NCBI RefSeq assembly: GCF_000025285.1
Contig: NC_013741.1
Coordinates: forward strand, 496,001 to 560,000
DNA: 64,000 nucleotides
Direction: 5' to 3'
Source of the DNA: Archaeoglobus profundus DSM 5631
GTDB taxonomy: Archaea; Halobacteriota; Archaeoglobi; Archaeoglobales; Archaeoglobaceae
Shown: positions 19,102-30,779 of the stretch, piece by piece
Layout of the letters: each line of letters starts with the position of its first letter
Numbering within the stretch: position 1 is the stretch's first letter
Made by a program: the position numbers and the translations under genes
The notes under the pieces: model-generated
Databases searched by the model: none
What the model was told of the DNA's origin: nothing
The model's input: the letters and a program-made list of their open reading frames with translations, nothing else

Positions 19102-19102
19102 A

Positions 19103-19132
19103 AGTTTTTATTTTCTTAATTTTCTTACTGTG
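19103..19132 (+). terminator. T-rich transcription terminator after kae1
   Basis: Immediately after the kae1 stop there is a run of T-rich sequence (GTTTTTATTTTC, then TTTTCTT) without a stem, the usual form of archaeal intrinsic termination. It separates the housekeeping block from the accessory island. Confidence 0.45.
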
Positions 19133-19139
19133 TGTTGAA

Positions 19140-19440
19140 AGCCATGATATAATTTCTCAATCTGGGGATGTAATCAAGACATTGTTACACATCTGTGCTC
19201 GAAGAATCCCCTAGAGTGGGAGAAGAAGTTTACAAGTTCCAAAACATTTGGGGGCTAAGGAACTTAATGAGATTGCAAAAAGCATTTGACAATTTTACTC
19301 ACGTCTGACAGTGAGGTTACACGTTCGGTCAAAAACACTGTCGAGAAGTTTTTACGTATCTATCTGAGGCATCAATGCAATAGTGATCGATAAAAACCAG
19401 CTCTAATCTCCTTGTAATTTATTGTTTGTAAGGCCAATGT
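19140..19440 (+). pseudogene. possible remnant of a winged-helix regulator gene
   Basis: The gap of about 410 bases between kae1 and the RNA ligase gene has no intact reading frame. Short overlapping stretches in different frames (one with LNEIAKSI ending in a stop near 19290, the next continuing LTSDSEVTRSVKNTVEKFL to about 19360) together resemble an HTH recognition region of MarR type. This suggests a decayed gene broken by frameshifts. The resemblance is weak and could be chance. Confidence 0.25.
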
Positions 19441-19515
19441 ATACTGGGCCATAAAGCTTACATAGATTTTGGAAAGAAACGCTTAAACTTGGTCCAGATT
19501 AAAAACAGCAGGACA

Positions 19516-20155
19516 ATGATAACGTACAAAATAAGGAGGTTCAACATAGAAGGGTTTGAGATAAGAGGGAAGAAGTATCTCAGCCCTGAAGAAGAGTTTC
19601 TACTTTCTAAGAAGGTTTTCGTGCAAGAGAAGGTTGACGGAAAGTTCACATGCAGGGATTTTGGAGATTTCTTAATTCTATGCGAAGACTTGAGGGACAC
19701 GCACACAATATACTACAAGAATTTGCCATCAAGGTTTCTGGGTTTTGACGTATATCAAAAGGATGAAGGATTTTTGGAGGTTAAGGAAGCTTACAAAATC
19801 ATGTTAGAGTACGGGATAATACCGGTTCCAATAATATATGTCGGCAAAGTCGATAAAGAAATGATAAAAAATTTCGTTCTCGAGAAAAACTCAGAATTCT
19901 TAACAGAAATAAATCCAAAAATGAGGGACATTGCAAAGGAAGTAGCTCCAGATATCGTCGGGAAAAAGAATTTCATAGAAGGTGTTGTCGTCAAGTATTA
20001 CGAGAACAACAGACTATACGCTGGAAAAGCCGTGAATCCAGCCTTTGAAAAAATAGGCCGGTAGATATGAAATGTACAAGCACAGGAACAGAATTACCCC
20101 TTGGAGCGAAGAAAAACTCAACAAATATTTTAGAAGAGTGTTTTCTTGGCTGTAG
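19516..20155 (+). pseudogene. RNA ligase-family protein gene with C-terminal frameshift
   Basis: The open frame from ATG 19516 encodes 182 residues of a nucleotidyltransferase-fold ligase: nucleotidyl lysine in EKVDGK (K39), motif III FLGFDVY (74-80), motif IV EGVVVKYY (155-162) and motif V AGKAVNPAFEK (169-179). It stops at 20064, but the +1 frame from about 20053 to the stop at 20155 encodes a further 30 or so basic residues (GRYEMYKHRNRITPW...) that look like a natural continuation. So one frameshift near GGCCGG separates the tail. All core motifs are upstream, so a shortened active enzyme is conceivable. It converges with the E1 gene. Confidence 0.6.
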
Positions 20156-20167
20156 ATCTTTATTTAT

Positions 20168-20968
20168 CTAGGATTCATCTAAGGCCGAACAAATCTCGCA
20201 ACGAGGATTTCTCTTCAAATTAGCCGTGCTGAATTTCATCTCTGCGAGATTTACTGAAATGTAGTTAGGTGGTTTTGAAATCTCGAAAAGTACATTAAAA
20301 GCTATCATAGCAGCGAGACTTGCCAAAAAACTTAGAGTTGGAGCAGGACTAACAGCGTAACCTGTTTTCATGCTTAAATCTACTTTATCGCTAAGATTTG
20401 TTTTGTCAAGTACCGGCAACTCGAAGTAACTACACCTGAGGCATGCAGTCTTACCGGGAATTATTAACCTTACATGTCCCCTTAATCCATCCGTCGTAAA
20501 CCCAGTATCAATCATTGTGGTATTAGTTTCCACACAAATGTCGTTAACGTAAATTCTAGAGCTTGTATTGTCAGTAGCAGTTACAACCAAATTTGCTTCT
20601 TCTACAATTTCTTGTAAGTCAATTTCAAGAACATTCTTTGGTATTGCCTCAATTCTCACGCTATGGTTTTCAAATATCTTCTCGAGCTTACGCTTCAAGA
20701 TCTCGGCTTTATTTTTTCCTATATCGCAGACTTCAAATCCATCTCTGTTTAGATTTTCAATTTCGACTATATCATTGTCTATCAAGACCAAATTGCCGAT
20801 ACCTAGTCTTGTAATCAGCCTCGCAATTGGATTGCCTAAGCCACCACAGCCGACGATTATTACCTTCATTTCTCTCGCTTTTTCGTAGCTCCACCCCTTT
20901 AGACCTATGAGTCTGCTAAACTCTCTCGGAGTCGAATCACTAGAAGAGGAAAAATTCGGTAACGCCAT
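20168..20968 (-). CDS. E1-like ubiquitin-activating/ThiF-MoeB family adenylyltransferase
   Basis: A 266-residue ThiF/MoeB/E1 protein. The ATP loop is VGCGGLG (39-45), the ribose aspartate is in IDNDIVE (64-66), the ENLNR arginine finger region is 71-75, and ATDNTSSR is 131-138. Paired cysteines CLRC (176-179) and CEIC (257-260) form the usual structural zinc site. The crossover region (about 195-215), where ThiF and E1 enzymes carry the catalytic cysteine, has none. It should adenylate the C-terminus of a ubiquitin-like protein; how a thioester forms is unclear. Last gene of the ten-gene operon, overlapping the previous gene by 29 bases. Confidence 0.88.
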   Translation of the reverse strand: MALPNFSSSSDSTPREFSRLIGLKGWSYEKAREMKVIIVGCGGLGNPIARLITRLGIGNLVLIDNDIVEIENLNRDGFEVCDIGKNKAEILKRKLEKIFENHSVRIEAIPKNVLEIDLQEIVEEANLVVTATDNTSSRIYVNDICVETNTTMIDTGFTTDGLRGHVRLIIPGKTACLRCSYFELPVLDKTNLSDKVDLSMKTGYAVSPAPTLSFLASLAAMIAFNVLFEISKPPNYISVNLAEMKFSTANLKRNPRCEICSALDES

Positions 20969-21233
20969 CTTTCACGACCTCCTCCATATTTAATCTAACT
21001 TTCATCCCGTTCCTAGTTACAGTGAAGTTTGTAAACTCAAAATCTAGGAAACCATTCACGACTACACTTTTAAACCACTCGGAGTACGTAATCGCATTTT
21101 TTACGAAAAAGTACAATGGTACTTTGTTCTTATATTTCAAGGAAACTACTCTCGGTTTTCGGTAGTATATTATAGATTCTTCTTCATTTAGGTCATAAAC
21201 TCCAAATAACTGAGATTCGCTATCTGCTATCAA
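20940..21233 (-). CDS. small unknown protein between JAMM and E1 genes
   Basis: A 97-residue protein I do not recognise. It is rich in aromatic residues and predicted beta strands (for example the segments around residues 28-45 and 58-82) with an acidic N-terminus, and ends in FFLF. It overlaps the JAMM gene by 14 bases and the E1 gene by 29 bases, so it is certainly translated as part of the operon. It has no Gly-Gly tail, which argues against its being the conjugated modifier. A compact beta fold acting as an adaptor is a guess. Confidence 0.6.
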   Translation of the reverse strand: MIADSESQLFGVYDLNEEESIIYYRKPRVVSLKYKNKVPLYFFVKNAITYSEWFKSVVVNGFLDFEFTNFTVTRNGMKVRLNMEEVVKDGVTEFFLF

Positions 21234-21768
21234 TATGGTACTTAACTGTGGCTTTTTCGAGGTAATCCGCAGAAGCTAGAGTGTAAACTCTGAATGGTAT
21301 ACCATATTTGTAGAAGATCTTGACTTTCACTTTAGAAAAAATTTCGTGATCTTCAACAACTTTAAGCCTAATCTGCTTACCGTTTTTATTGAACGCTTTA
21401 ATTTCGAACTTTTTTGGATCCATAACTAAAGCTATCCTGTTAAGTTTGCTTTTCCTTAAGTTTGCGAGATCCGTGCTTGAAAGATACGCTCCAAATCCAA
21501 CGTGAGTGTGGATAGTCCCTAAATTTTCGAGCCCTGCTGGTAGGAAAGAGTTTTCAAGCTGATTGTAAGTTACACTTACAGGAGACGAGGTTCCCTTGTA
21601 TTTGAATATGCTCAAGACCAAGTAGCCTTCATCAGTTACCACTCCAACCAGTGCTCCCACTATTTCATTTTCTCCCGCTTTTACAGCAGCTTCGTAGAAG
21701 TCTAGTAGCTCAGTTTCACTTACTAGCACATACTCACAGTTAGCTCTACAAAAGTTTAAGAGGAACAT
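21220..21768 (-). CDS. JAMM/MPN-domain metallopeptidase (deubiquitinase-like)
   Basis: A 182-residue JAB/MPN protein with a complete JAMM motif: glutamate in NEIVGALVG (E35), then HTH (H87, H89), seven residues, S97-S-T-D100. These residues bind zinc and activate water in Rpn11, AMSH and CsaB-type isopeptidases. It starts at the base after the Ubl-E2 stop. In this operon it would process a ubiquitin-like precursor or remove it from targets. The C-terminal third, after about residue 130, is extra to the minimal domain and not recognised. Confidence 0.9.
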   Translation of the reverse strand: MFLLNFCRANCEYVLVSETELLDFYEAAVKAGENEIVGALVGVVTDEGYLVLSIFKYKGTSSPVSVTYNQLENSFLPAGLENLGTIHTHVGFGAYLSSTDLANLRKSKLNRIALVMDPKKFEIKAFNKNGKQIRLKVVEDHEIFSKVKVKIFYKYGIPFRVYTLASADYLEKATVKYHIDSR

Positions 21769-22542
21769 CTACTCACCCCTTAGAATTCTTAAAATGTCCG
21801 ACATTTCTCTGAGTGTTGTAGATTTCTCCCCTAAAGCTTCGTATCCGATCCTGATCCAAGGAAACACAACATCCGAAATATAGTGTGCTATGCCTAGCCT
21901 CCCAGTCCAATTCTGAAGATACTTTTTATCACCACATACCACAATTATTTTCTTACCATTAATGTAGAACGGATAGACATGTTTGTGAATATTTGAGGCC
22001 ATGTATTTGTCAAAAAATCTTCCACGAAGAGTTGCCTCGGGATGGACAAGTGGGTATGCTGGCGGTAAGAATACAAGCAGTTCAACTGATCCATAGCTTC
22101 CCACTCTTATACATCCCTTAACCGTCTTTAAACCTTCATACGTATAAAACGCTGGATTTACATAAGCAAACCCAGGGTTGTTTCTCCCTATCAGGTTGTT
22201 AAGCATTTTAATCCTGACGATTTCTTCCCTTGCCCTTTCATTCCACTTCGGACTGTTTACTTTAACATTCCTCAAAAAATTGGGGAAATCAGGGATTATA
22301 CCCTGATCCCCCTCACTTAAAACCCTAAATCTAGTTTCTCCTGTCTCTCTTACAATATCTCTGACTGTCTTGCCAGGATCAACTGGTAATCCAGAAGTTG
22401 TGGCGATAATTGACTCTCTCCACTTTTCGGGAGGCACAGCTCTCATACCGACCTCAAAAAGCCTTTCATTTGGGTTTGCCTCAACATATATTTCCTCTCC
22501 ATCTACCTCCAAAATTAAGGGTATTGCCCCCATACCGAACAC
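21769..22542 (-). CDS. ubiquitin-like domain fused to E2/UBC-fold conjugating enzyme
   Basis: A 257-residue two-domain protein. Residues 7-76 look like a beta-grasp ubiquitin-like domain (ILEVDGEEIYVEANPNERL...KTVRDI...FRVLSEG). Residues 100-240 look like an E2: strand then proline turn FLPPAYPLVHPEA (158-170), then GKKIIVVCGDKKYLQNW, where Cys203 and Trp212 fall at the places of the E2 catalytic cysteine and the tryptophan after it. There is no internal Gly-Gly after the Ubl part, so that domain is probably a docking module rather than the modifier. GGGGGTG precedes the ATG. It should accept the activated modifier from the E1. Confidence 0.82.
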   Translation of the reverse strand: MFGMGAIPLILEVDGEEIYVEANPNERLFEVGMRAVPPEKWRESIIATTSGLPVDPGKTVRDIVRETGETRFRVLSEGDQGIIPDFPNFLRNVKVNSPKWNERAREEIVRIKMLNNLIGRNNPGFAYVNPAFYTYEGLKTVKGCIRVGSYGSVELLVFLPPAYPLVHPEATLRGRFFDKYMASNIHKHVYPFYINGKKIIVVCGDKKYLQNWTGRLGIAHYISDVVFPWIRIGYEALGEKSTTLREMSDILRILRGE

Positions 22543-22545
22543 CCC

Positions 22546-22728
22546 CTAACGAATTAAACTCACAATCGAAGGAATTACACTCTTAATTCGAACAACCCAG
22601 AATGTCCAGACCTGTTTAGCAAACGATATCAGTTCTGGTATCGTTAAGTTCGTTGGGACGTCGACTTTACCTTCTATGATCGGTATAGCGATTGCCAAAA
22701 AATAATGAAAATCAGAATCTTCTTGCAC
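22546..22728 (-). CDS. small hydrophobic protein of the Ubl operon
   Basis: A 60-residue protein with probable GTG start at 22728 preceded by GAGGGGTG. It has an acidic N-terminus (MQEDSD), a hydrophobic stretch at about 9-18 and a second amphipathic to hydrophobic segment at about 38-59 ending in SLIR. Three bases separate its stop from the Ubl-E2 start. It is not recognised; a short membrane-associated peptide is plausible from composition. Confidence 0.5.
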   Translation of the reverse strand: MQEDSDFHYFLAIAIPIIEGKVDVPTNLTIPELISFAKQVWTFWVVRIKSVIPSIVSLIR

Positions 22729-22745
22729 ATGGCATTACACCCCTC

Positions 22746-22886
22746 TTATAGCCCTCTCCACCATTCTATGTCATCTTCGCATGGGCGTGCTGTCCTTCGG
22801 TTTCTTATTTTTCTCAGAACCCATACTATCAGCACGGTCAGTAAGAGTCCTGCTACAGTTGCGGCAAAAATTAAGTTGGAGTTCAT
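22746..22886 (-). CDS. 46-residue single-pass membrane protein
   Basis: A short frame with ATG at 22886 and TAA at 22746 encodes a protein that begins MNSNLIFAATVAGLLL, has one clear membrane helix (about residues 5-24), then a basic stop-transfer cluster (RKIRNRRTAR) and an acidic/aromatic tail with EDDIEWWRGL. A GGGGTGAGG ribosome site lies just upstream, and the gene begins five bases after the FtsZ-like stop. The Trp-rich cytoplasmic tail looks like a docking peptide. Function unknown. Confidence 0.6.
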   Translation of the reverse strand: MNSNLIFAATVAGLLLTVLIVWVLRKIRNRRTARPCEDDIEWWRGL

Positions 22887-22891
22887 ACTCC

Positions 22892-24088
22892 TCACCCCCT
22901 TACAAAGTTCTCCAAAACCTCGTCATCGACCAATCCTGTACCAAGGTAGTTCTCTAGTTCAGGAATAGCCTCATCAACAATCTTTCTGTGGTTGTGAAGA
23001 AAGTGCCTGATTGCCATTTCGTTACCCTTCAGGAAGGCAGTCACGGAGATTGGGATGTACTTTATTGGCAGGTGAAATCCGTCAGCTATAATATTTTCTG
23101 CAAACTCAAACTCCTTGCCGAAGATTTCTAGATCTACAATTTTAACCGGAGAAATTATCGAGATTCTCACGAGTTCGGAATCTCTTGCATGGAACACGGC
23201 TCTCGCGTATAGCGAAGTAGAATCGAAGTCAATAGCCCTTTTGGCGAGTTTGAATATATCCTCTCCACCGATGCTCTTTACCCTAGGTAAATGTGTGATA
23301 GATCTGTATTCTGTGTTCGTTGTAAAGAATCCTCCTCTTCCGATGATGTCTGTCAGATCTATTCTGTTAATTCCTGCCTTGTATTTCGAAAGCAAGAGTG
23401 TCATTATCGTGTTGAGTATATTTAGATCGCTCAGCTTTTTAAGTGTTGGTTCTCTATCGAAGTAGCTCAAAATTAGGCTACGTCTGTCTCCAACTTCGTT
23501 CATTAGCTTTAGCGTGACGAGAATCGAATTGGCAATTTGTGGAGCATAGTCACCCCTCGAAAGGCTTACGTAATCGATTATCTGAGCTTTACTTTCAATG
23601 CTCCTTACAAGTTTCTTAACCTCGTTTGAAACTGCTAGTGCGTAACCAGAAGACGTCCCGCCTGCGAATATAAGCTCGATAAATGTAGATGGTACTACTC
23701 CGTACTTGGATTTAAGCTCGTTTAAGTATTTGTTTATCTTAAAGCTAATCTCTGCGGACATTGGACGAATTGTCTCATAACCGACCATCGCGTTTTTTCC
23801 ACAGCCGTCTATACCTAAACCTATTACCAGCGCCGAACGGAAGCAGTGCTTAACTTTTTCAAAGACGGCCGATGCTACATTATCGTCGGCTAAAATACAT
23901 ATCAAGTGAGTGTATTTCCTGAGTATTGCCGGAAGCTTTGTGGTGACAAGGTTAGCAGATTCATCTCCAACTGATGTTAGAAAGTAGCCATTGGACCACA
24001 TGTTTCTCCATTCCGGTGGCTCGTAGATTTCTTTGCCAAACGATTCTGGCTTTATATTGAAAACCGTCCTCACAAACATCCTCATCAC
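22892..24088 (-). CDS. divergent FtsZ/tubulin-superfamily protein
   Basis: A 398-residue protein resembling FtsZ/tubulin. The segment ELIFAGGTSSGYALAVSNEV has AGGTSSG (142-148) in place of the tubulin GGGTGSG phosphate loop (T4), with the helix after it. Before it come GLGIDGCGKNAMVGYE (90-105) as a T3-like region and VIG-type strands; after it, NSILVTLKLMNEVGDRRSLIL fits the guanine-binding helix H7 region. The N-terminal T1 loop is degenerate (SVGDESAN). It overlaps the preceding membrane-protein gene by ATGA, so the two are translationally coupled. A polymerising GTPase tied to a ubiquitin-like system is suggested; sequence divergence leaves some doubt. Confidence 0.68.
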   Translation of the reverse strand: MMRMFVRTVFNIKPESFGKEIYEPPEWRNMWSNGYFLTSVGDESANLVTTKLPAILRKYTHLICILADDNVASAVFEKVKHCFRSALVIGLGIDGCGKNAMVGYETIRPMSAEISFKINKYLNELKSKYGVVPSTFIELIFAGGTSSGYALAVSNEVKKLVRSIESKAQIIDYVSLSRGDYAPQIANSILVTLKLMNEVGDRRSLILSYFDREPTLKKLSDLNILNTIMTLLLSKYKAGINRIDLTDIIGRGGFFTTNTEYRSITHLPRVKSIGGEDIFKLAKRAIDFDSTSLYARAVFHARDSELVRISIISPVKIVDLEIFGKEFEFAENIIADGFHLPIKYIPISVTAFLKGNEMAIRHFLHNHRKIVDEAIPELENYLGTGLVDDEVLENFVRG

Positions 24089-24867
24089 CTCAACAACCTA
24101 AAATTCGTTTGAGCAAATTCTTCCTCCTCCTTAGGCAACTTATTAGCCAGATAGTACCTCCAGACAAAGACTGCCGTGCCAGCGATTAATGCTAAAATCA
24201 CTACAGCCAAAATCGGAGACGAGTTGTCAGGCTCTGACACGGTTAGTAATCCCTCTATTTCGTTTAAAATTGCATTTGCTTCTTCCAGTTGCCCGTCTTC
24301 CAGCGTACTTTTAGCAATTCTGAACTTCTCCTCGATGATTAGCTGAAGTCTTTCTGGAATTGCACTCTTGACTTTTTCGTATTTAGCATAAAGTTCTCCG
24401 TACCTTTTCAACAACTGTAATCGTTCAGATTGGGTAGTGGACTTATCTCTCGTCGTCTTTTGCGGAGTTAGTGTAAGTTCTTTTTGGATAGAAGGGGAGT
24501 CGATACGGTAAGCATTTGGAAATATGACTGCCAATGTTTCTGCATCAGGCATATCACCTATTATTGTAATCTCGACGGTTTGGCCCTTTGAAATTTTGAA
24601 ATCGATTGTGTCTGACTTGATTGTATTGTATGGTACACTCTCTTTCGTTAAAACATCAACTACCTTAAACGTCGGATTCTTGAGCTTTGTGTATACTTGG
24701 ACACTCTCGTCTTGTTGTCCCAAGATAGTTACGTAAATTCCAACTACATCACCAACTGTCGGATTTTCTGGTCTGACTTTTGCACTCACGACAAGTGGCT
24801 CCGCTGCACAAGCTATGGGTAGAATAACTATTGCCATTACTACAGCCAAAAACTTAGCCCAATACAT
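24085..24867 (-). CDS. exported, C-terminally membrane-anchored protein
   Basis: A 260-residue protein starting at ATG 24867, set by GGAGGTGG just upstream (a longer frame to 24891 has no such site). Residues 1-22 form a signal peptide ending ACAA (the cysteine at 20 could also be a lipidation site). Residues 24-133 are beta-rich with an immunoglobulin-like look (VVSAKVRPENPTVGDVV). Residues 146-208 are helical, probably coiled coil. One membrane helix at about 218-238 precedes a short cytoplasmic tail (KLPKEEEEFAQTNFRLLR). The outside-facing domain and inside tail, coupled to the FtsZ-like gene, suggest a membrane tether. Confidence 0.7.
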   Translation of the reverse strand: MYWAKFLAVVMAIVILPIACAAEPLVVSAKVRPENPTVGDVVGIYVTILGQQDESVQVYTKLKNPTFKVVDVLTKESVPYNTIKSDTIDFKISKGQTVEITIIGDMPDAETLAVIFPNAYRIDSPSIQKELTLTPQKTTRDKSTTQSERLQLLKRYGELYAKYEKVKSAIPERLQLIIEEKFRIAKSTLEDGQLEEANAILNEIEGLLTVSEPDNSSPILAVVILALIAGTAVFVWRYYLANKLPKEEEEFAQTNFRLLR

Positions 24868-24891
24868 TCTAACCACCTCCGTTTTACCCAA

Positions 24892-25013
24892 TTCGAGGCC
24901 ACGTCTCGCTAAAGATAAACTAAAAAATAAAAACTAAATATTAAGAATACATAGGATTTTCTTGTGCCTTATCAGAATTAGACGTTGTACTCCACAGTTC
25001 TTCGCATTCTTTC
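24892..25013. promoter_or_regulatory. AT-rich gap, possible internal promoter
   Basis: About 120 bases of very AT-rich sequence separate the two small upstream genes from the membrane-protein gene. On the minus strand it holds T-rich and TTAATATTTAG-like stretches that could both terminate and restart transcription. It is the only sizeable gap inside the operon, so the first two genes may form a separate unit. Confidence 0.3.
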
Positions 25014-25322
25014 TCAACTAAGGTCTTTAAGAGATCGACCAACTTCTGTTTGATAAGTCCATTGAACAGAAAATCTCTCTAGTTTGTTATACCTCGGAAA
25101 CAATACAAGCTTAAGCAAGAATTCGTAGTAATCTATGCATGATAACGCAAATTTCTCTAAAACAAATTCGACATCTTCAAGCTTTACGCTACCCAGATCT
25201 CTTTGAATAGCTTCTCTGGCAAATAAGAGTGCTTTAAATACGATGAAGCGCGTTGGATCTTCTTCAATTTTCCTAAAAACTTCCTCTATAAACTCTTCAT
25301 AATCTACCATATCCGACATCAT
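25014..25322 (-). CDS. small acidic helical protein of the Ubl operon
   Basis: A 102-residue protein, not recognised. The N-terminal 80 residues are acidic and predicted mostly helical (DYEEFIEEVFRKIEEDP; VKLEDVEFVLEKFAL), ending in a more polar tail. A strong GGGGGTGAT lies just before the ATG. It sits upstream of the membrane-anchored protein on the same strand after a 120-base gap. It could be an adaptor or substrate of the conjugation system; nothing in the sequence says which. Confidence 0.5.
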   Translation of the reverse strand: MMSDMVDYEEFIEEVFRKIEEDPTRFIVFKALLFAREAIQRDLGSVKLEDVEFVLEKFALSCIDYYEFLLKLVLFPRYNKLERFSVQWTYQTEVGRSLKDLS

Positions 25323-25358
25323 ATCACCCCCTTATTTTTCAAAAGTCAAATAAAAAAT

Positions 25359-25553
25359 TTAAATAAAAAATATTTTTGATAACTCTTCTAGCGCCTTGCG
25401 TTTATCGAGTTTTCCCTTAAAAACTACTGTTGCACGATGGATGTAGCCATCTTTACCGAGATAGCGGAACTTTACTAAGCTAATGTCTCGATCTGCAATA
25501 TATCTAACAACTACCACATTATCCACGCTCCTTAGGTAGTCGGTGGTCCACAT
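25359..25553 (-). CDS. small basic protein opening the Ubl operon
   Basis: A 64-residue protein with alternating beta strands (NVVVVRYIADRDISLVKFRYLG...ATVVFKG) and a C-terminal helix (KALEELSKIFFI). Not recognised. It has no Gly-Gly terminus, although the size and beta-rich pattern are compatible with a compact beta fold. A perfect hairpin sequence lies five bases upstream of the ATG and there is no clear ribosome site, so translation may be controlled. Confidence 0.5.
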   Translation of the reverse strand: MWTTDYLRSVDNVVVVRYIADRDISLVKFRYLGKDGYIHRATVVFKGKLDKRKALEELSKIFFI

Positions 25554-25557
25554 CTCA

Positions 25558-25589
25558 GCCCTGCCCTATTCGCTAATCTCGGGCAGGGC
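25558..25589 (-). promoter_or_regulatory. perfect 9-bp inverted repeat before the Ubl operon
   Basis: GCCCTGCCC (25558-25566) and GGGCAGGGC (25581-25589) are exact inverted repeats around a 14-base AT-rich loop, very GC-rich in an AT-rich neighbourhood. Its edge is five bases from the start codon of the first operon gene. It could be an operator in DNA or a leader hairpin hiding the translation start. Confidence 0.6.
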
Positions 25590-25806
25590 CTCACTAACCC
25601 TCAATACTAGATATATACTAATATGTTTAATATTTTTCGGTCGAAAAAAATGGATAATACTTATTTTGTTGGATAAATTGAATATAGCAATTATCTTGTT
25701 AAAGAATAGTAGAGGGAACAATAAATTGCAAAATTTGCAAAGTATGTAAACCTTTGCAAAATTGATTATAAATAGTGTTAAATAAATTATATCAACTAGA
25801 ATCGTT
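25590..25806. promoter_or_regulatory. divergent AT-rich promoter region
   Basis: AT-rich sequence between the leftward Ubl operon and the rightward orphan pair. It contains several TATA-like tracts: TAGATATATACTAATATG at 25608-25625 and TTATAAATAG at 25765-25774. The latter is about 33 bases before the ATG at 25807 and suits a short-leader or leaderless start. No larger repeat was seen. Confidence 0.4.
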
Positions 25807-26223
25807 ATGGAGTTTGGTAGGATAATTGTACACAACAAAGTACATGGTACTGAACAAATAAAGCTCGCACCCCCAGGAGGGGCAAGGGTAAGACACTACA
25901 TATTTAGGATATATTACGATGATGGAAGCGTTGAAAAAAGTCCAACATTCTCCGTAGGTCCTGTAGGTCCAGGAGGTGAAATGAAATACGTTCACGGATT
26001 AATAGATGTTGAGGGAGTAATACTACCCGCAGACATTAAAGATGACCCAATACACTTGGAGTACTATGACGAGAAGTTAAAAAGAGCTAAATATATAATA
26101 CGTGTTAATAAAATAAATCGATTCGAAATAGGTGGTTGGACACCCTCAAAATTGTCTACAAGACAAAAAGGAATAAAAATAATTGAGTTGATAGAATATG
26201 ATACTGCATTAGTAGAGGTGTAA
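25807..26223 (+). CDS. unknown protein, AT-rich orphan gene 1
   Basis: A 138-residue protein, not recognised. The first 80 residues are rich in beta-strand pattern with Gly/Pro turns (APPGGARVRHYIFRIYYDDG; VGPVGPGGE), the rest alternates Lys/Ile. Codon choice is far more AT-rich than the housekeeping genes, with many ATA, AAT and AAA codons, a sign of foreign origin. Three bases separate its stop from the next start, so the pair is one unit. It is divergent from the Ubl operon. Confidence 0.55.
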   Translation: MEFGRIIVHNKVHGTEQIKLAPPGGARVRHYIFRIYYDDGSVEKSPTFSVGPVGPGGEMKYVHGLIDVEGVILPADIKDDPIHLEYYDEKLKRAKYIIRVNKINRFEIGGWTPSKLSTRQKGIKIIELIEYDTALVEV

Positions 26224-26226
26224 TTT

Positions 26227-27279
26227 ATGGTAGAGGAAGATGTGTTTAAGAGAGAATATTGGGACAACGAGAGCGTAAACAGGTATTTAGAGAAATTAGG
26301 TGTGTCACCAGAACAAAAAGCTTTGTATTTTGCAACAACCTTTTTTGGAGTACGTGACGACGGGAGATATAACCCACAAGAAGCTATTATCAAAGAGGCA
26401 AATAGAATTTATGAAATGTTTGAAGGTCGGCGAGGTCGTATAGATTCGAGAACTTTTAATAAGTTATGGGAGACAGGACTCTTAGCCCCTGTTGATTATT
26501 TCTATGTTGATCCTATAATACTAGCAGAAGGTAGAGGTTCAAAAAAAACTTGGATTGGAATCCATCCTTGGGTGCTGGAATTACTAGAGGAGGTTGATAA
26601 AAGGAAACAATCATTAGATTCAATTTTTATGAATATACCATTGAAACCAAGACCTTATTCTCCAGATTATAATTACTGGTTCAGAGCAAAGGGTAAGTAC
26701 ACTTTCATAACTAAAACTTTCTACAGATTTATGTATGGTTATATGATCAGCAACATATTATGTAGCATCAATGATGATAAAGTAGCGAACATTAAAATAA
26801 GAACCCTAACTCGCACAACTAGAATCGAAAAAGATATTAATAAAATTATACAATATCTTGAAAGTAATCTGGAGAACATAAATTTCGATGTTAGATATTA
26901 CCACGAAGAAAAGTTCGAAATACTTACAACACTAATCCAAAGTTTAAAGGATAAAATCGAAGAGTTTATTACGCCAGATTCAAAAATTAATCGTTTATTA
27001 AACTTGATAACATCGATATTGATAAAACAAAACAATATACTAAACAACATTTCGAAAATAGAAAAAATTTGGCTTGTAGAAATTAGAAGAAAAGGTGAAC
27101 CAAAAGAGGTAACATTTGGTGGAAACATTGCATCATATACTCCTGGCTTCCTAGAGACAAAAAAGTACGGAAGCACCATATACGTCAATAGAGAGGATTT
27201 CATCAAGTACGTTCAAGAATTATTTAACCTATTGGATATGATCGACGATGAGAAAGATGAACTTCAAGTATTATTTTAA
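26227..27279 (+). CDS. unknown protein, AT-rich orphan gene 2
   Basis: A 350-residue protein, not recognised. The N-terminal half has an aromatic-rich region (YNYWFRAKGKYTFITKTFYRFMYGYM, about 148-173, shown here only in part as FRAKGKYTFI). The region about 195-275 is Asn/Ile/Lys-rich and likely coiled coil. The C-terminus is acidic. Like its partner it is unusually AT-rich and has no signal peptide or clear membrane helix. A T-rich terminator follows. Possibly a virus- or plasmid-derived gene. Confidence 0.55.
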   Translation: MVEEDVFKREYWDNESVNRYLEKLGVSPEQKALYFATTFFGVRDDGRYNPQEAIIKEANRIYEMFEGRRGRIDSRTFNKLWETGLLAPVDYFYVDPIILAEGRGSKKTWIGIHPWVLELLEEVDKRKQSLDSIFMNIPLKPRPYSPDYNYWFRAKGKYTFITKTFYRFMYGYMISNILCSINDDKVANIKIRTLTRTTRIEKDINKIIQYLESNLENINFDVRYYHEEKFEILTTLIQSLKDKIEEFITPDSKINRLLNLITSILIKQNNILNNISKIEKIWLVEIRRKGEPKEVTFGGNIASYTPGFLETKKYGSTIYVNREDFIKYVQELFNLLDMIDDEKDELQVLF

Positions 27280-27280
27280 T

Positions 27281-27300
27281 CTTCTTTTTTTATTAACTTT
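27281..27300 (+). terminator. T-rich terminator after orphan pair
   Basis: CTTCTTTTTTTATTAAC directly after the stop of the 350-residue gene, a typical archaeal U-tract terminator that closes the island transcription unit. Confidence 0.45.
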
Positions 27301-27400
27301 TAAGAAAATAACAGATGCATGCTGAAATTGAGTATAAACTCATGTGCCGTAAGTAAAGTGGAATGTCGTTGAGGTAGTCGTCAAAGAGGTTTTAAACACC

Positions 27401-27604
27401 TTACCTCACTTGGTTCTGTGCGGATGACATTTTGAACTTTGAATCAACGAGTCCTTGAGCTTCCAAGTTTGCCAAAACACTCCTAACATCTTCAAGCTTG
27501 ACGTTGAGCTTTTTGGCTATATCTTTTGGCGTTCTTAATCCGTTGGCTATTGCCAGAAGCACGGCCTCCTCAAAATCCATGAATTTCATTTGAACTTGCA
27601 TCAA
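27401..27604 (-). CDS. small winged-helix DNA-binding protein
   Basis: A 67-residue protein with one winged-helix domain: FEEAVLLAIANGLRTPKDIAKKLNV, then LEDVRSVLANLEAQGLVDSK as recognition helix and wing. It is transcribed divergently from the adjacent flavoprotein gene with only about 45 bases between the starts, so it may control that gene and itself. The exact start among the N-terminal methionines is uncertain. Confidence 0.7.
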   Translation of the reverse strand: MMQVQMKFMDFEEAVLLAIANGLRTPKDIAKKLNVKLEDVRSVLANLEAQGLVDSKFKMSSAQNQVR

Positions 27605-27649
27605 AAAACTTTTGGCAAACTTTATCTAATTCGCATTCCTTCCGCTTTC

Positions 27650-29317
27650 ATGGACATAGTAGTTATAGGTGGAGGTGCTTGCGGCCTCAAGGCTGCGTGC
27701 AGAGCCAGAAGGAGAAACGAGGAAGCGAATATAACCGTTGTCGATGCAAGCCCCTATCCGTCTTTGGGAAGGTGCGGTTTGCCGTACTACATTGGTGGGA
27801 TCGTCCACACCGTTGATGATTTGAGAAAAACGCTTTCCGGAACTGTCAGAGATGAGGATTACTTTAAGAAGGTCAAAAATATAGATGTCCTAACGAGAAC
27901 TAGAGCTGTTAAGATAGACAGAGAAAAGAGAATCGTAAAGATTGTAAAGCCCGATGGAAGTGAGGACGAATTGAATTATGATTACTTGGTTTTGGCAACC
28001 GGTGCAAGGCCTATAAGGCTGGATATACCCAATGCAGATGCCGATGGTGTTACAACACTCTTCAATCCAGAGGATGCTGAAAAGATTCTGGACATGTGGG
28101 ATGAGGGAATTCTGGAAAAGGCTGTGATAATCGGTGGTGGACTCATAGGAATGGAAACTGCAGAAGCTCTGAGCAATTTGGATGTTGAGGTAACGATAGT
28201 TGAAATTATGGATTACATACTTCCCGCTCTGCTTGATAGGGAGATGGCGATGCTCGTCGAAAGCTATCTGAGGGAGAAGGGAATAAATGTGATGACAAAA
28301 AGCACTGTAACAGAGATTTTGACAAAAGATGGAAGAGTCAGTGGTGTTAAGATCAACGGAACTAAGGAAGTGCCTTGTGATCTAGTTCTGATGGCTGTTG
28401 GAGTTAGACCTAACGTTGATTTAGCAGTTGACTGCAGTTTGGAAGTAAGCAAGTTTGGGATAAAGGTCGATGAATACCTCAGAACGAGCGACGAAAGGAT
28501 CTTTGCTGGTGGAGATTGCGTTGAGAATAAATTCTTGGTTACAGGTGATCCTATTTACACTCCGATGGGTAGCGTTGCGAATAAGCACGGAAGGGTTATA
28601 GGAGACAACATAACGGGAGGAAGTTCAAGGTTCCCCGGTGTTTTGGGTACGACGATCTTCAAGATATTTGATCTAAACGTTGCGAGAACAGGTTTAACTG
28701 AGAAGAGAGCTAGAGAGTTAGGATACGATGTTGTAACTTGCTTGGTTCCCGGACCAGATAGAGCCCATTACTATCCACATCAGAAACCCATCAGAATCAA
28801 GTTGATAGCGGATAGAAAGACTGGAAGAATTTTAGGTGCTCAGATAGTGGGATGGGGTGTTGTGGATAAGAGGATTGATGTAGTAGTTTCCGCCATGCAC
28901 ATGAACGCCACCGTACATGACTTGGCAAACTTCGACTTAGCTTATGCACCTCCATACGCTCCAGCCATCGATACACTCATACACGCCGCCAACACCGTTA
29001 GAAACAAGATGGATGGGTTACTTGAAACGATTTCAAGCTTTGAACTTAAAGAGAAGCTTGATAAAGGTGAAGACTTCGTCATACTTGACATCAGGTATGA
29101 GGATGAAGTCAGAAAGTTCAAGAGGATCGAAGACAGCAGGGTAGTTCACATACCCTACAATGAGCTTAGAGAGAGGTATAAGGAACTTCCAATGGACAAG
29201 GAGATCGTTATAATCTGCCAGATAGGAAACAGAGCATACGATGTCTACAGGTTCTTGAAGAGTAAAGGATTTAACTGCAAGGTGTTGGATGGCGGTTTAG
29301 CCTTCTGGTTCTGGTGA
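27650..29317 (+). CDS. CoA-disulfide reductase / NADH oxidase with C-terminal rhodanese domain
   Basis: A 555-residue flavoprotein. The FAD-binding VVIGGGACGLKAA start (residues 3-15) is followed by the redox-active SLGRCGLPYYIGG segment, an NAD-binding VIIGGGLIGMETAE (about 161-174), and a FAGGDC motif. The last 90 residues are a rhodanese domain with ILDIRYEDEV and active-site cysteine in ICQIGNRA. Such fusions reduce CoA disulfide, CoA persulfide or polysulfide and fit sulfur metabolism. A TATA-like TTTATCTAA about 25 bases before the ATG supports this start. Confidence 0.88.
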   Translation: MDIVVIGGGACGLKAACRARRRNEEANITVVDASPYPSLGRCGLPYYIGGIVHTVDDLRKTLSGTVRDEDYFKKVKNIDVLTRTRAVKIDREKRIVKIVKPDGSEDELNYDYLVLATGARPIRLDIPNADADGVTTLFNPEDAEKILDMWDEGILEKAVIIGGGLIGMETAEALSNLDVEVTIVEIMDYILPALLDREMAMLVESYLREKGINVMTKSTVTEILTKDGRVSGVKINGTKEVPCDLVLMAVGVRPNVDLAVDCSLEVSKFGIKVDEYLRTSDERIFAGGDCVENKFLVTGDPIYTPMGSVANKHGRVIGDNITGGSSRFPGVLGTTIFKIFDLNVARTGLTEKRARELGYDVVTCLVPGPDRAHYYPHQKPIRIKLIADRKTGRILGAQIVGWGVVDKRIDVVVSAMHMNATVHDLANFDLAYAPPYAPAIDTLIHAANTVRNKMDGLLETISSFELKEKLDKGEDFVILDIRYEDEVRKFKRIEDSRVVHIPYNELRERYKELPMDKEIVIICQIGNRAYDVYRFLKSKGFNCKVLDGGLAFWFW

Positions 29318-29439
29318 TCTCATAAATCTTTTTTACGTGAACTTTCTTTCAGTTCCTTCTACACTCCCACGCTACTACTTCCTGATAATTCTACGTTAAT
29401 TTACCTCAATTCAATGAAACATCCGATGATTCGTAGTTC

Positions 29440-29467
29440 CTTTCAATCGTAGCGAAGTGATTTCAAA
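29440..29467 (+). repeat. solitary CRISPR-repeat-like sequence
   Basis: The 28 bases begin CTTTCAATC and end TGATTTCAAA, the same ends as the roughly 30-base CRISPR repeats I recall from Archaeoglobus genomes (CTTTCAATCCC...TGATTTCAAC), with a different middle. Only one copy is present, with no spacers, so it could be a relic or coincidence. It lies in the 183-base gap before mdh. Confidence 0.25.
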
Positions 29468-29500
29468 AATTGTTTAAATCGACGTTTGGCAAATTAACCC

Positions 29501-30385
29501 ATGAAACTCGGATTTGTTGGTGCTGGAAGGATTGGTTCTACAACAGCTTTCACGTGCATTCAGCACTTAGACTTGGATGAAGTCGTTTTGGTAGATATAG
29601 TAGAGGATTTGGCTGTTGGGGAGGCCATGGATTTATCACATGCTATCGTTGGGCTTGACAAATACGCTAAGATCGTCGGTGGAAGCGATTACTCCTTGCT
29701 GAAAGGTTGCGATTTAATAGTCGTTTCAGCTGGACTGGCAAGAAAGCCGGGGATGACTAGGCTCGATTTGGCTAAAAAGAATGCGGAAATAATGAGGAGC
29801 GTTGCTAAAAATATCGTAAAGCATGCTAGTGATAGCAAGATTCTCGTCGTGACAAATCCTTTGGATGTCATGACTTACGTGATGTGGAAGGAGACTGGAA
29901 AGGATAGAAGGGAAGTTTTCGGAATGGGTAGCTTGCTCGATACGGTAAGGCTTAAGGAGAGGATAATTGCGTTGGGCGGGAAGCCTAGGAGAATATTTAT
30001 GATGGGTGAGCACGGAGATTCGATGTTCTGCCCGAAGAGCTTGGCTGAAGTTGAGGGTGAGGTCGATTTGGACAGGGCCATTGAGGAGACGAGAGGCGTT
30101 GCAATGGAGGTCATAAAGAGGAAAGGAGCTACATTCTACGCCCCAGCTGTCTGCATTTACAGGATGGTTAAAGCGGTGTTGGAAGATACTAAGGAGGAGA
30201 TTCCAACAAGTGTAGTCTTACAGGGAGAATACGGGATAAGTGATGTTGCTTTGGGTGTTCCAGCGATACTTGGAAGAGATGGGGTTGAAAGAATTGTAGA
30301 ATACGACTTGACTGATGAAGAAAAAGCTATGCTGATGAAATCGGCTGAAATACTCAAGGAGAGATTGAAAGAGCTTGGATATTAA
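29501..30385 (+). CDS. mdh: malate dehydrogenase
   Basis: A 294-residue LDH-like malate dehydrogenase, the same length as the Archaeoglobus fulgidus enzyme and very similar in reading. It has the Rossmann GFVGAGRIGS (4-13), LVDIVEDLAVGEAMDLSHA, GLARKPGMTRLDL, VTNPLDVMTY and the catalytic GEHGDSM. It interconverts malate and oxaloacetate with NAD(H). TTTAAAT about 25 bases before the ATG indicates a nearly leaderless single-gene transcript. Confidence 0.95.
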   Translation: MKLGFVGAGRIGSTTAFTCIQHLDLDEVVLVDIVEDLAVGEAMDLSHAIVGLDKYAKIVGGSDYSLLKGCDLIVVSAGLARKPGMTRLDLAKKNAEIMRSVAKNIVKHASDSKILVVTNPLDVMTYVMWKETGKDRREVFGMGSLLDTVRLKERIIALGGKPRRIFMMGEHGDSMFCPKSLAEVEGEVDLDRAIEETRGVAMEVIKRKGATFYAPAVCIYRMVKAVLEDTKEEIPTSVVLQGEYGISDVALGVPAILGRDGVERIVEYDLTDEEKAMLMKSAEILKERLKELGY

Positions 30386-30602
30386 GCATATTTGCTCCTC
30401 TAGTTTCATCATCTATATCTATTTCTTTCAGCTAAAGTTCTAGCCTTCTTAAGGTTCTTGATACTTGCCACAACTCTAAAAGAGCTGTGTTGTGTCTAGA
30501 TGTCGTAAAGCTTCTCAAAACTTTCGATGTACCCCCTAGGATAGCCACAACATCGCTAAGGCAACAGCATGCTTTTTATATCTCTTAAGCGTAGTTAATC
30601 CA

Positions 30603-30674
30603 GCCCCCGTGGGGTAGGCGGACATCCTGAGGGTCTCCGGAACCCTCGACCCGGGTTCAACTCCCGGCGGGGGC
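30603..30674 (+). tRNA. tRNA-Arg (anticodon CCG)
   Basis: A 72-base cloverleaf. Acceptor GCCCCCG pairs with CGGGGGC. The D arm has conserved A14 and G18-G19. The anticodon stem AGGGT/ACCCT encloses loop CTCCGGA with anticodon CCG. A four-base variable region leads to T stem CCGGG/CCCGG with loop TTCAACT. CCA is not encoded and no intron is present. A TTTATATCTC box about 30 bases upstream would be the promoter. Confidence 0.9.
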
Positions 30675-30779
30675 GTACGAGTTGTATTTGACGATACGAT
30701 GTAGACAATCATGATACAATTATGATGAGGAAAAGTTTAAATCACTATCACACAGACTAGGATTATAAGGGTAGGGGAA

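What the first reader, a model, noticed from the sequence alone, without database searches (positions are those of the whole stretch)
20168..25553. Ten-gene operon joining E1, Ubl-E2 and JAMM proteins to an FtsZ-like GTPase and membrane proteins
Seen: ten leftward genes with gaps of 0-36 bases or overlaps (one gap of about 120) encode E1-like, JAMM, Ubl-E2, FtsZ/tubulin-like, exported anchored, single-pass membrane and small unknown proteins. Known: prokaryotic E1/E2/JAB clusters exist, some now linked to phage defence, and divergent FtsZ-like families have been proposed in membrane remodelling. Inference: this archaeal set couples ubiquitin-type modification to a membrane-tethered cytoskeletal polymer, perhaps for vesicle formation, cell shape, or defence. 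I know of no described system with this exact composition.
Basis: partly seen in the sequence, partly recalled or inferred. Interest (0 to 1): 0.95.

Follow-up and report, generated by a model that had tools for sequence, protein, structure and literature searches.

The report
Archaeal ubiquitin-like tagging operon with tubulin-like protein
A heat-loving archaeon carries a rare, mobile-looking gene set that joins a ubiquitin-type protein-tagging kit, related to one that bacteria use against viruses, to a distant FtsZ/tubulin-like protein and small membrane proteins, a combination not found described.

Summary
The operon is real. It lies in the genome of Archaeoglobus profundus, and a second Archaeoglobus (MAG GB_MAG3_049) keeps eight of its genes in the same order at 35-71% protein identity. 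It is found in 2 of 59 Archaeoglobi and in no other sampled Halobacteriota, and its segment is absent from the closest relative. The missing clue was the ubiquitin-like (Ubl) domain: it is homologous to BilA (DUF2604), the modifier of the bacterial BilABCD antiphage system (P = 2.6e-8). The order Ubl, E2, JAMM, E1 is the Bil order A-B-C-D, with A and B fused. BilA's C-terminal glycine aligns with a conserved Gly at the Ubl/E2 junction, so the JAMM probably cuts there. The cassette departs from Bil: the E1 has no IAD or Cys domain and a Tyr at the UBA5 Cys position, and the E2 lacks BilB's CEHH. The FtsZ-like call is moderately supported (profile match to FtsZ/CetZ, T4 loop and T7 motif in register), not proven. 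'Ten genes' needs correction: three genes are frameshifted relative to the relative (the 97-aa ORF is the JAMM C-terminus), and the 64-aa ORF has no counterpart. Best reading: a membrane-tethered, Bil-related tagging system, probably antiviral; function untested.

The parts
20168..20968 (-). E1-like adenylating enzyme (266 aa), minimal ThiF/UBA5/MccB type; CxxC...CxxC zinc tetrad kept; no Cys in the crossover loop (Tyr where UBA5 has its Cys)
   Evidence: Pfam ThiF 3e-47; 71% identical to G032 orthologue; UBA5/MccB nearest solved structures and alignment
20940..21218 (-).
   Evidence: in-frame fusion in G032 (281 aa); 52% identity continues across the junction
21220..21768 (-). JAMM/JAB metalloprotease domain, HTHVGFGAYLSSTD with upstream Glu; BilC-like
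   Evidence: Prok-JAB 1e-6; nearest solved relative is an Rpn11-like archaeal DUB; BilC P=6e-4
21769..22299 (-). E2 (UBC) domain with LPPxYP, catalytic-type Cys (codon 21934-21936) and Trp (21907-21909); no HPN motif
   Evidence: full-length profile alignment to Ubc4; secondary structure of low-confidence AF2 model
22300..22533 (-). Ubiquitin-like domain of the BilA/DUF2604 family, fused to the E2; predicted JAMM cut after Gly of GDQG (codon 22300-22302)
   Evidence: hhalign to BilA prob 95, P=2.6e-8, 0/300 shuffles; Foldseek to BilA 8tyx and UFM1, prob 1.00; PDB profile hit
22546..22730 (-). Small exported protein; signal peptide from ATG 22728-22730 is out of frame with the mature part because of a 1-nt shift at T6 22697-22702
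   Evidence: 67-aa intact orthologue with signal peptide in G032
22746..22886 (-). Single-pass membrane protein (46 aa) with conserved cytoplasmic-type tail C-x-DDIEWW-x-x-L
   Evidence: hydropathy 2.65; tail conserved in G032
22892..24079 (-). FtsZ/CetZ/tubulin-like GTPase (395 aa), T4-like loop AGGTSSG, T7-like motif NRIDLTD
   Evidence: hhalign to CetZ and FtsZ profiles with T1/T3/T4/T7 in register; 1/271 and 0/271 shuffles score as high; 61% identical to G032
24085..24867 (-). Exported, membrane-anchored protein: signal peptide, beta-rich then helical extracellular part, one TM helix, short cytoplasmic tail ending NFRLLR
   Evidence: two hydrophobic segments; tail NFRL[LM]R conserved in G032
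24941..25078 (-). Out-of-frame continuation of the 102-aa ORF (RDFLFNGLIKQKLVDLLKTLV...)
   Evidence: three-frame translation compared with 136-aa G032 orthologue
25014..25322 (-). Helical protein, 102 aa as read here, 136 aa in G032; C-terminus frameshifted
   Evidence: tblastn E=5e-9 to G032 p136
25359..25553 (-). 64-aa ORF, not supported by conservation; may be leader or chance
   Evidence: no counterpart in the 187 nt upstream in G032
19102..30602 (.). Segment absent from the closest sequenced relative at this place (Kae1 is followed directly by tRNA-Arg there); the operon sits inside
   Evidence: blastn against G002, tRNA-Arg 30603-30675

Best explanation
An accessory Ubl-conjugation system, related to bacterial BilABCD, working together with a membrane-tethered FtsZ/CetZ-like GTPase. 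Proposed steps. (1) The JAMM protease cuts the Ubl-E2 precursor after the conserved GDQG glycine (inferred from the BilA alignment). (2) The minimal E1 adenylates the freed Ubl and, lacking a thioester Cys, hands the adenylate directly to the E2 Cys (inferred). (3) The E2 tags nearby proteins and the JAMM removes tags (inferred from the families). (4) The GTPase polymerises under the membrane, held by the conserved short tails of the exported and single-pass proteins, and concentrates the tagging enzymes or is itself their target (inferred). Most likely use: antiviral or other conflict function at the cell envelope. Shown here: the gene set, its order, the Ubl homology, the E1/JAMM assignments and the patchy distribution.
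For: Ubl is homologous to BilA with conserved VEANPN, PPExW and terminal Gly. Same order Ubl-E2-JAMM-E1 as three Bil operons on rhizobial plasmids. Whole order conserved in a second genome with purifying selection. Two or three gene products have signal/TM segments and two have conserved tails. FtsZ/CetZ-like profile match in register. Patchy: 2/59 Archaeoglobi, 2/394 Halobacteriota; segment missing from the closest relative. Bil tags a phage tail fibre (PMC12948488) and BilC frees the BilA C-terminal Gly (PMC11354881).
Against: No E3, effector or target identified; no mobile-element gene or recognised defence neighbour in the island. No test links the polymer to tagging. The tubulin assignment rests on modest scores, and AF2 models were poor (mean pLDDT 40 and 53) because only two sequences are known. 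In this strain three genes are frameshifted, so the system may be partly broken here.
Confidence: 0.5

Rival explanations
1. Envelope remodelling without any link to viruses: the GTPase shapes the membrane or forms vesicles and the tagging enzymes turn the polymer over.
For: FtsZ/CetZ relatives act in division and shape (established knowledge); the FtsZl1 family was linked to membrane remodelling (PMC2875224); membrane proteins with conserved tails.
Against: Present in 2 of 59 Archaeoglobi, while the relatives examined all carry standard FtsZ/CetZ genes; frameshifts in this strain argue against an essential role; the tagging half is nearest to a defence system.
Confidence: 0.3
2. The E1 without a thioester Cys serves sulfur transfer or peptide adenylation (MoeB/MccB-like), and the Ubl is a carrier, not a tag.
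For: E1 nearest to UBA5 and MccB and no crossover-loop Cys.
Against: E2 domain with Cys and a JAMM in the same operon, and a BilA-type Ubl; none of these is needed for sulfur transfer or MccB chemistry.
Confidence: 0.1
3. In A. profundus the locus is a decaying remnant of a formerly active system (compatible with the best explanation for the relative).
For: Three frameshifts against the relative in 5.4 kb while the genome error rate is reported below 1 in 100,000 (PMC3035285).
Against: All catalytic genes are open and conserved at the expected residues; 454 homopolymer error remains possible for the T6 run.
Confidence: 0.3
4. The 395-aa protein is not tubulin-like but another Rossmann-like protein with a chance glycine motif.
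For: No significant Pfam or PDB sequence match; low-confidence model; top Foldseek hits mixed.
Against: Unguided profile alignment places T1, T3, T4, the H6 Asn and T7 in register with CetZ; 1/271 and 0/271 shuffles reach the score; gamma-tubulin, FtsZ and TubZ are among the top Foldseek hits.
Confidence: 0.15

Closest known systems
BilABCD (bacterial ISG15-like antiphage conjugation system)
   Same: Ubl of the BilA/DUF2604 family; Ubl-E2-JAB-E1 gene order; JAMM protease; E1
   Different: A and B fused; E1 minimal (266 vs about 519 aa) without inactive domain, Cys domain or thioester Cys; E2 without CEHH but with canonical-type Cys/Trp; accompanied by FtsZ-like and membrane proteins; archaeal
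Caldiarchaeum/Asgard ubiquitin operons
   Same: Archaeal Ubl, E1, E2 and Rpn11-like JAMM together
   Different: No RING E3 found here; Ubl is BilA-type; extra GTPase and membrane genes
FtsZl1/FtsZl2 and CetZ families (FtsZ-tubulin superfamily)
   Same: T4 glycine loop and T7-type acidic motif in a superfamily-like layout; linked to membrane genes
   Different: Below Pfam thresholds; no VWA, OmpA or small GTPase neighbours; no long coiled-coil extension; tied to Ubl genes
UFM1-UBA5
   Same: Minimal E1 of UBA5 type; Ubl fold close to UFM1
   Different: Crossover-loop Cys absent; Ubl sequence nearest to BilA

Membership tests
BilABCD | BilA/DUF2604 ubiquitin-like modifier | tested here: met
   hhalign P=2.6e-8, 33% identity over 76 columns, 0/300 shuffles
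BilABCD | Gene order Ubl-E2-JAB-E1 | tested here: met
   L104-L106 annotation against window and G032; Ubl and E2 are fused here
BilABCD | E1 with inactive plus active adenylation domains and Cys domain (Cys417 in BilD) | tested here: not met
   266 aa, single domain, Tyr at the UBA5 Cys position; BilD features from PMC11354881
BilABCD | E2 with CEHH motif | tested here: not met
   no significant profile match to BilB, P=0.05; residues after Cys203 do not fit the C-x5-E-x-H-x4-H spacing
BilABCD | JAB protease (Glu, HxH, SxxD) that frees the Ubl C-terminal Gly | tested here: inconclusive
   motif met; Gly conserved at the junction; cleavage not testable here
BilABCD | Antiphage activity | not testable with these tools
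   needs experiment
FtsZ-tubulin superfamily | T4 GGGTG(S/T)G loop and T7 acidic motif in a tubulin layout | tested here: inconclusive
   AGGTSSG and NRIDLTD in register with CetZ; 8/271 (FtsZ), 1/271 (CetZ), 0/271 (both) shuffles reach the score; Pfam Tubulin_2 only E=0.1
FtsZl1 membrane-remodelling system | VWA, OmpA-type and small GTPase partners; coiled-coil C-terminus | tested here: not met
   no such genes among operon or neighbours
E2 (UBC) enzymes | UBC fold with active Cys | tested here: inconclusive
   full-length alignment to Ubc4, Cys and Trp in register, 13/300 shuffles as high; HPN motif absent; no Pfam hit
Archaeal RING-type ubiquitin operon (Caldiarchaeum) | RING E3 gene | tested here: not met
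   no RING-like Pfam hit in operon proteins

The most novel reading that the evidence does not exclude
Ubiquitin-type conjugation in an archaeon directly controls a membrane-bound tubulin-family polymer: a self-contained tagging-plus-cytoskeleton machine outside eukaryotes, with a Cys-less E1 and a Ubl released from its own E2.
Probability: 0.3. Interest if true: 0.95.

Novelty: new variant of a known kind. Interest (0 to 1): 0.8.

Why it matters
It extends Bil-type ubiquitin-like conjugation to an archaeon in a compact Ubl-E2 fusion form with a simplified E1, and ties it for the first time, as far as the held literature shows, to a tubulin-family protein and membrane anchors. If functional it gives a small, heat-stable system in which tagging, removal of tags and a GTPase polymer could be reconstituted, and it makes the question of how tagging and cytoskeleton can become coupled testable.

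Tried and rejected
Scans of IMG/VR, phages and plasmids for the FtsZ-like and Ubl-E2 proteins found no relatives. A designed multi-motif alignment (A4, made of randomly altered rows, used only to steer the pattern choice) to widen the scan gave nothing. The first GTDB scan with the FtsZ-like protein found nothing; the second, with the E1 pair, returned only the G032 contig and three TrkA-type chance hits. AF2 with two sequences gave weak models: usable for the Ubl, not for the GTPase, so the Foldseek result for the latter is only suggestive. HHalign of the JAMM C-terminal domain to the Ubl was not significant (P=0.62), so I dropped the idea that it is a second Ubl. Prok-E2_B and DUF2604 Pfam searches in 247 Halobacteriota found no other members; for Prok-E2_B no control rang, so that absence is weak. 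The neighbouring 350-aa gene has no match in G032, G002 or phages. Programmed frameshifting was considered for the three broken genes and judged less likely than mutation: the shifts differ in direction and context. One shuffle run timed out and was repeated in a lighter form.
Full report
What is there. The window lies in a 1,563,423-base genome of two contigs, the larger of 1,560,622 bases, which matches Archaeoglobus profundus AV18T (chromosome 1,560,622, plasmid 2,801; PMC3035285). The ten leftward ORFs are present as described. Pfam confirms the E1 (ThiF, 3e-47) and the JAMM (Prok-JAB, 1e-6); the other eight have no family above its cut-off.

A second copy. Searches of relatives found the FtsZ-like and Ubl-E2 genes in one other genome, Archaeoglobus sp. 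GB_MAG3_049 (G032, contig JACDNU010000072.1, 5,384 bases). It holds, in the same order, a 136-aa protein, the exported protein, the FtsZ-like protein, a 44-aa membrane protein, a 67-aa signal-peptide protein, Ubl-E2, a 281-aa JAMM protein and E1. Identities run from 35% (p102) and 42% (membrane protein) to 71% (E1); pN/pS is 0.24-0.36 in E1, JAMM, Ubl-E2 and FtsZ-like (synonymous sites are near saturation, so this is a rough measure), so these are selected genes, not chance ORFs.

Corrections to the gene list. Compared with G032, three genes of the window are frameshifted. The 97-aa ORF is the C-terminal part of the JAMM protein; similarity runs through the junction in another frame. The 60-aa ORF lacks its signal peptide, which is present upstream but one base out of frame across a T6 run. 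The 102-aa ORF ends in the wrong frame and its homologous C-terminus lies at 24941-25078. The genome paper gives an error rate under 1 in 100,000 after Illumina polishing, which predicts about 0.05 errors in 5.4 kb, so real mutations are likelier than artefacts, though the T6 run is a classic 454 error context. The 64-aa ORF has no counterpart in the 187 nt available upstream in G032.

The tagging half is Bil-related. A profile of the two Ubl-E2 proteins finds BilA (8tyx) weakly in the PDB (E=0.12) with VEANPN in common, and Foldseek places the Ubl domain on UBA5-bound UFM1 and BilA with probability 1.00. The BilA sequence leads to DUF2604 genes on rhizobial plasmids; the three examined lie in an operon DUF2604 - E2 - Mov34/MPN - E1 (the second gene is annotated 'putative metal-binding protein' or hypothetical and taken as BilB from its place and the CEHH-type residues). 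HHalign of the window/G032 Ubl against those three BilA sequences gives probability 95 and P=2.6e-8 over 73-76 columns; none of 300 column shuffles reaches half the score, and the same Ubl does not match ubiquitin significantly. The last Gly of BilA aligns with the Gly of GDQG, just before the E2 domain begins. Since BilC exposes the BilA C-terminal Gly (PMC11354881), the simplest reading is that the JAMM here releases the Ubl from the Ubl-E2 precursor. This cleavage is inferred.

Differences from Bil. BilD has an inactive and an active adenylation domain plus a Cys domain; the E1 here is a single 266-aa domain whose nearest solved relatives are UBA5 and MccB. In the HMMER alignment UBA5's 'GVCAAS' stands opposite 'TGYAIS' in G032 (window: TGYAVS): no Cys. 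The E2 has no detectable relation to BilB (P=0.05) and lacks the CEHH arrangement, but aligns over its length with yeast Ubc4 with the Cys and the following Trp in register (13 of 300 shuffles reach the score, so this is supportive, not proof). It also lacks HPN. I therefore call the cassette Bil-related, not a BilABCD member.

The FtsZ-like protein. A. profundus already has three standard superfamily members found by PF00091; this is a fourth, not reached by Pfam thresholds. HHalign against FtsZ and CetZ profiles built from relatives gives P of 0.015-0.05; against column shuffles, 8 of 271 (FtsZ), 1 of 271 (CetZ) and 0 of 271 (FtsZ+CetZ) reach the score. The unguided alignment puts the T1 region, GLGIDGCGKNA near T3, GGTSSG on T4, the helix-6 Asn and NRIDLTD on T7. 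The AF2 model is poor (mean pLDDT 40), with gamma-tubulin, FtsZ and TubZ among mixed Foldseek hits. I hold the assignment at about 0.85.

Membrane parts. The exported protein has a signal peptide, an extracellular part, one TM helix and a short tail ending NFRL[LM]R; the small membrane protein ends C-x-DDIEWW-x-x-L. Such short conserved tails are what one expects of docking peptides; whether they bind the GTPase or the E2 is untested.

Distribution. Two of 59 Archaeoglobi and two of 394 sampled Halobacteriota genomes carry it. In the same-genus genome G002 the flanking Kae1 gene (93% identical) is followed directly by the tRNA-Arg that lies at 30603 in the window: 19102-30602 is missing there. 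Part of that segment (malate dehydrogenase-like and disulfide-reductase/rhodanese genes) is ordinary, so rearrangement as well as insertion is possible. The pattern suits an accessory element; A. profundus is reported to have no CRISPR repeats.

Verdict. The new points are the BilA homology, the Bil gene order, the Cys-less E1, the second genome and the frameshifts. The function is undecided between antiviral tagging at the membrane (favoured) and envelope remodelling.

Noticed in passing
window 19489-20064 (+): Small RNA-ligase-like protein (PF09414, 7e-9), convergent with the operon, inside the segment missing from G002; weak matches in jumbo phages (about 34% over 82 aa).
   Followed up: partly
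window 25807-27279 (+): Two divergent genes of unknown family (138 and 350 aa) in the lowest-GC part of the island (0.32-0.36); the 350-aa one had no match in G032, G002 or phages.
   Followed up: partly
L105 5941-10971: On Rhizobium etli p42a the Bil-type operon is followed by TIR-domain and caspase-family genes, a possible composite defence locus.
   Followed up: no
window 22697-22702: T6 run at the frame break of the small signal-peptide gene; a candidate for slippage or a 454 error.
   Followed up: partly
window 21480-21510 against L008 JAMM: The Pro usually found after HxH in JAMM proteases is Val in the window (HTHV) but Pro in the relative (HTHP).
   Followed up: no
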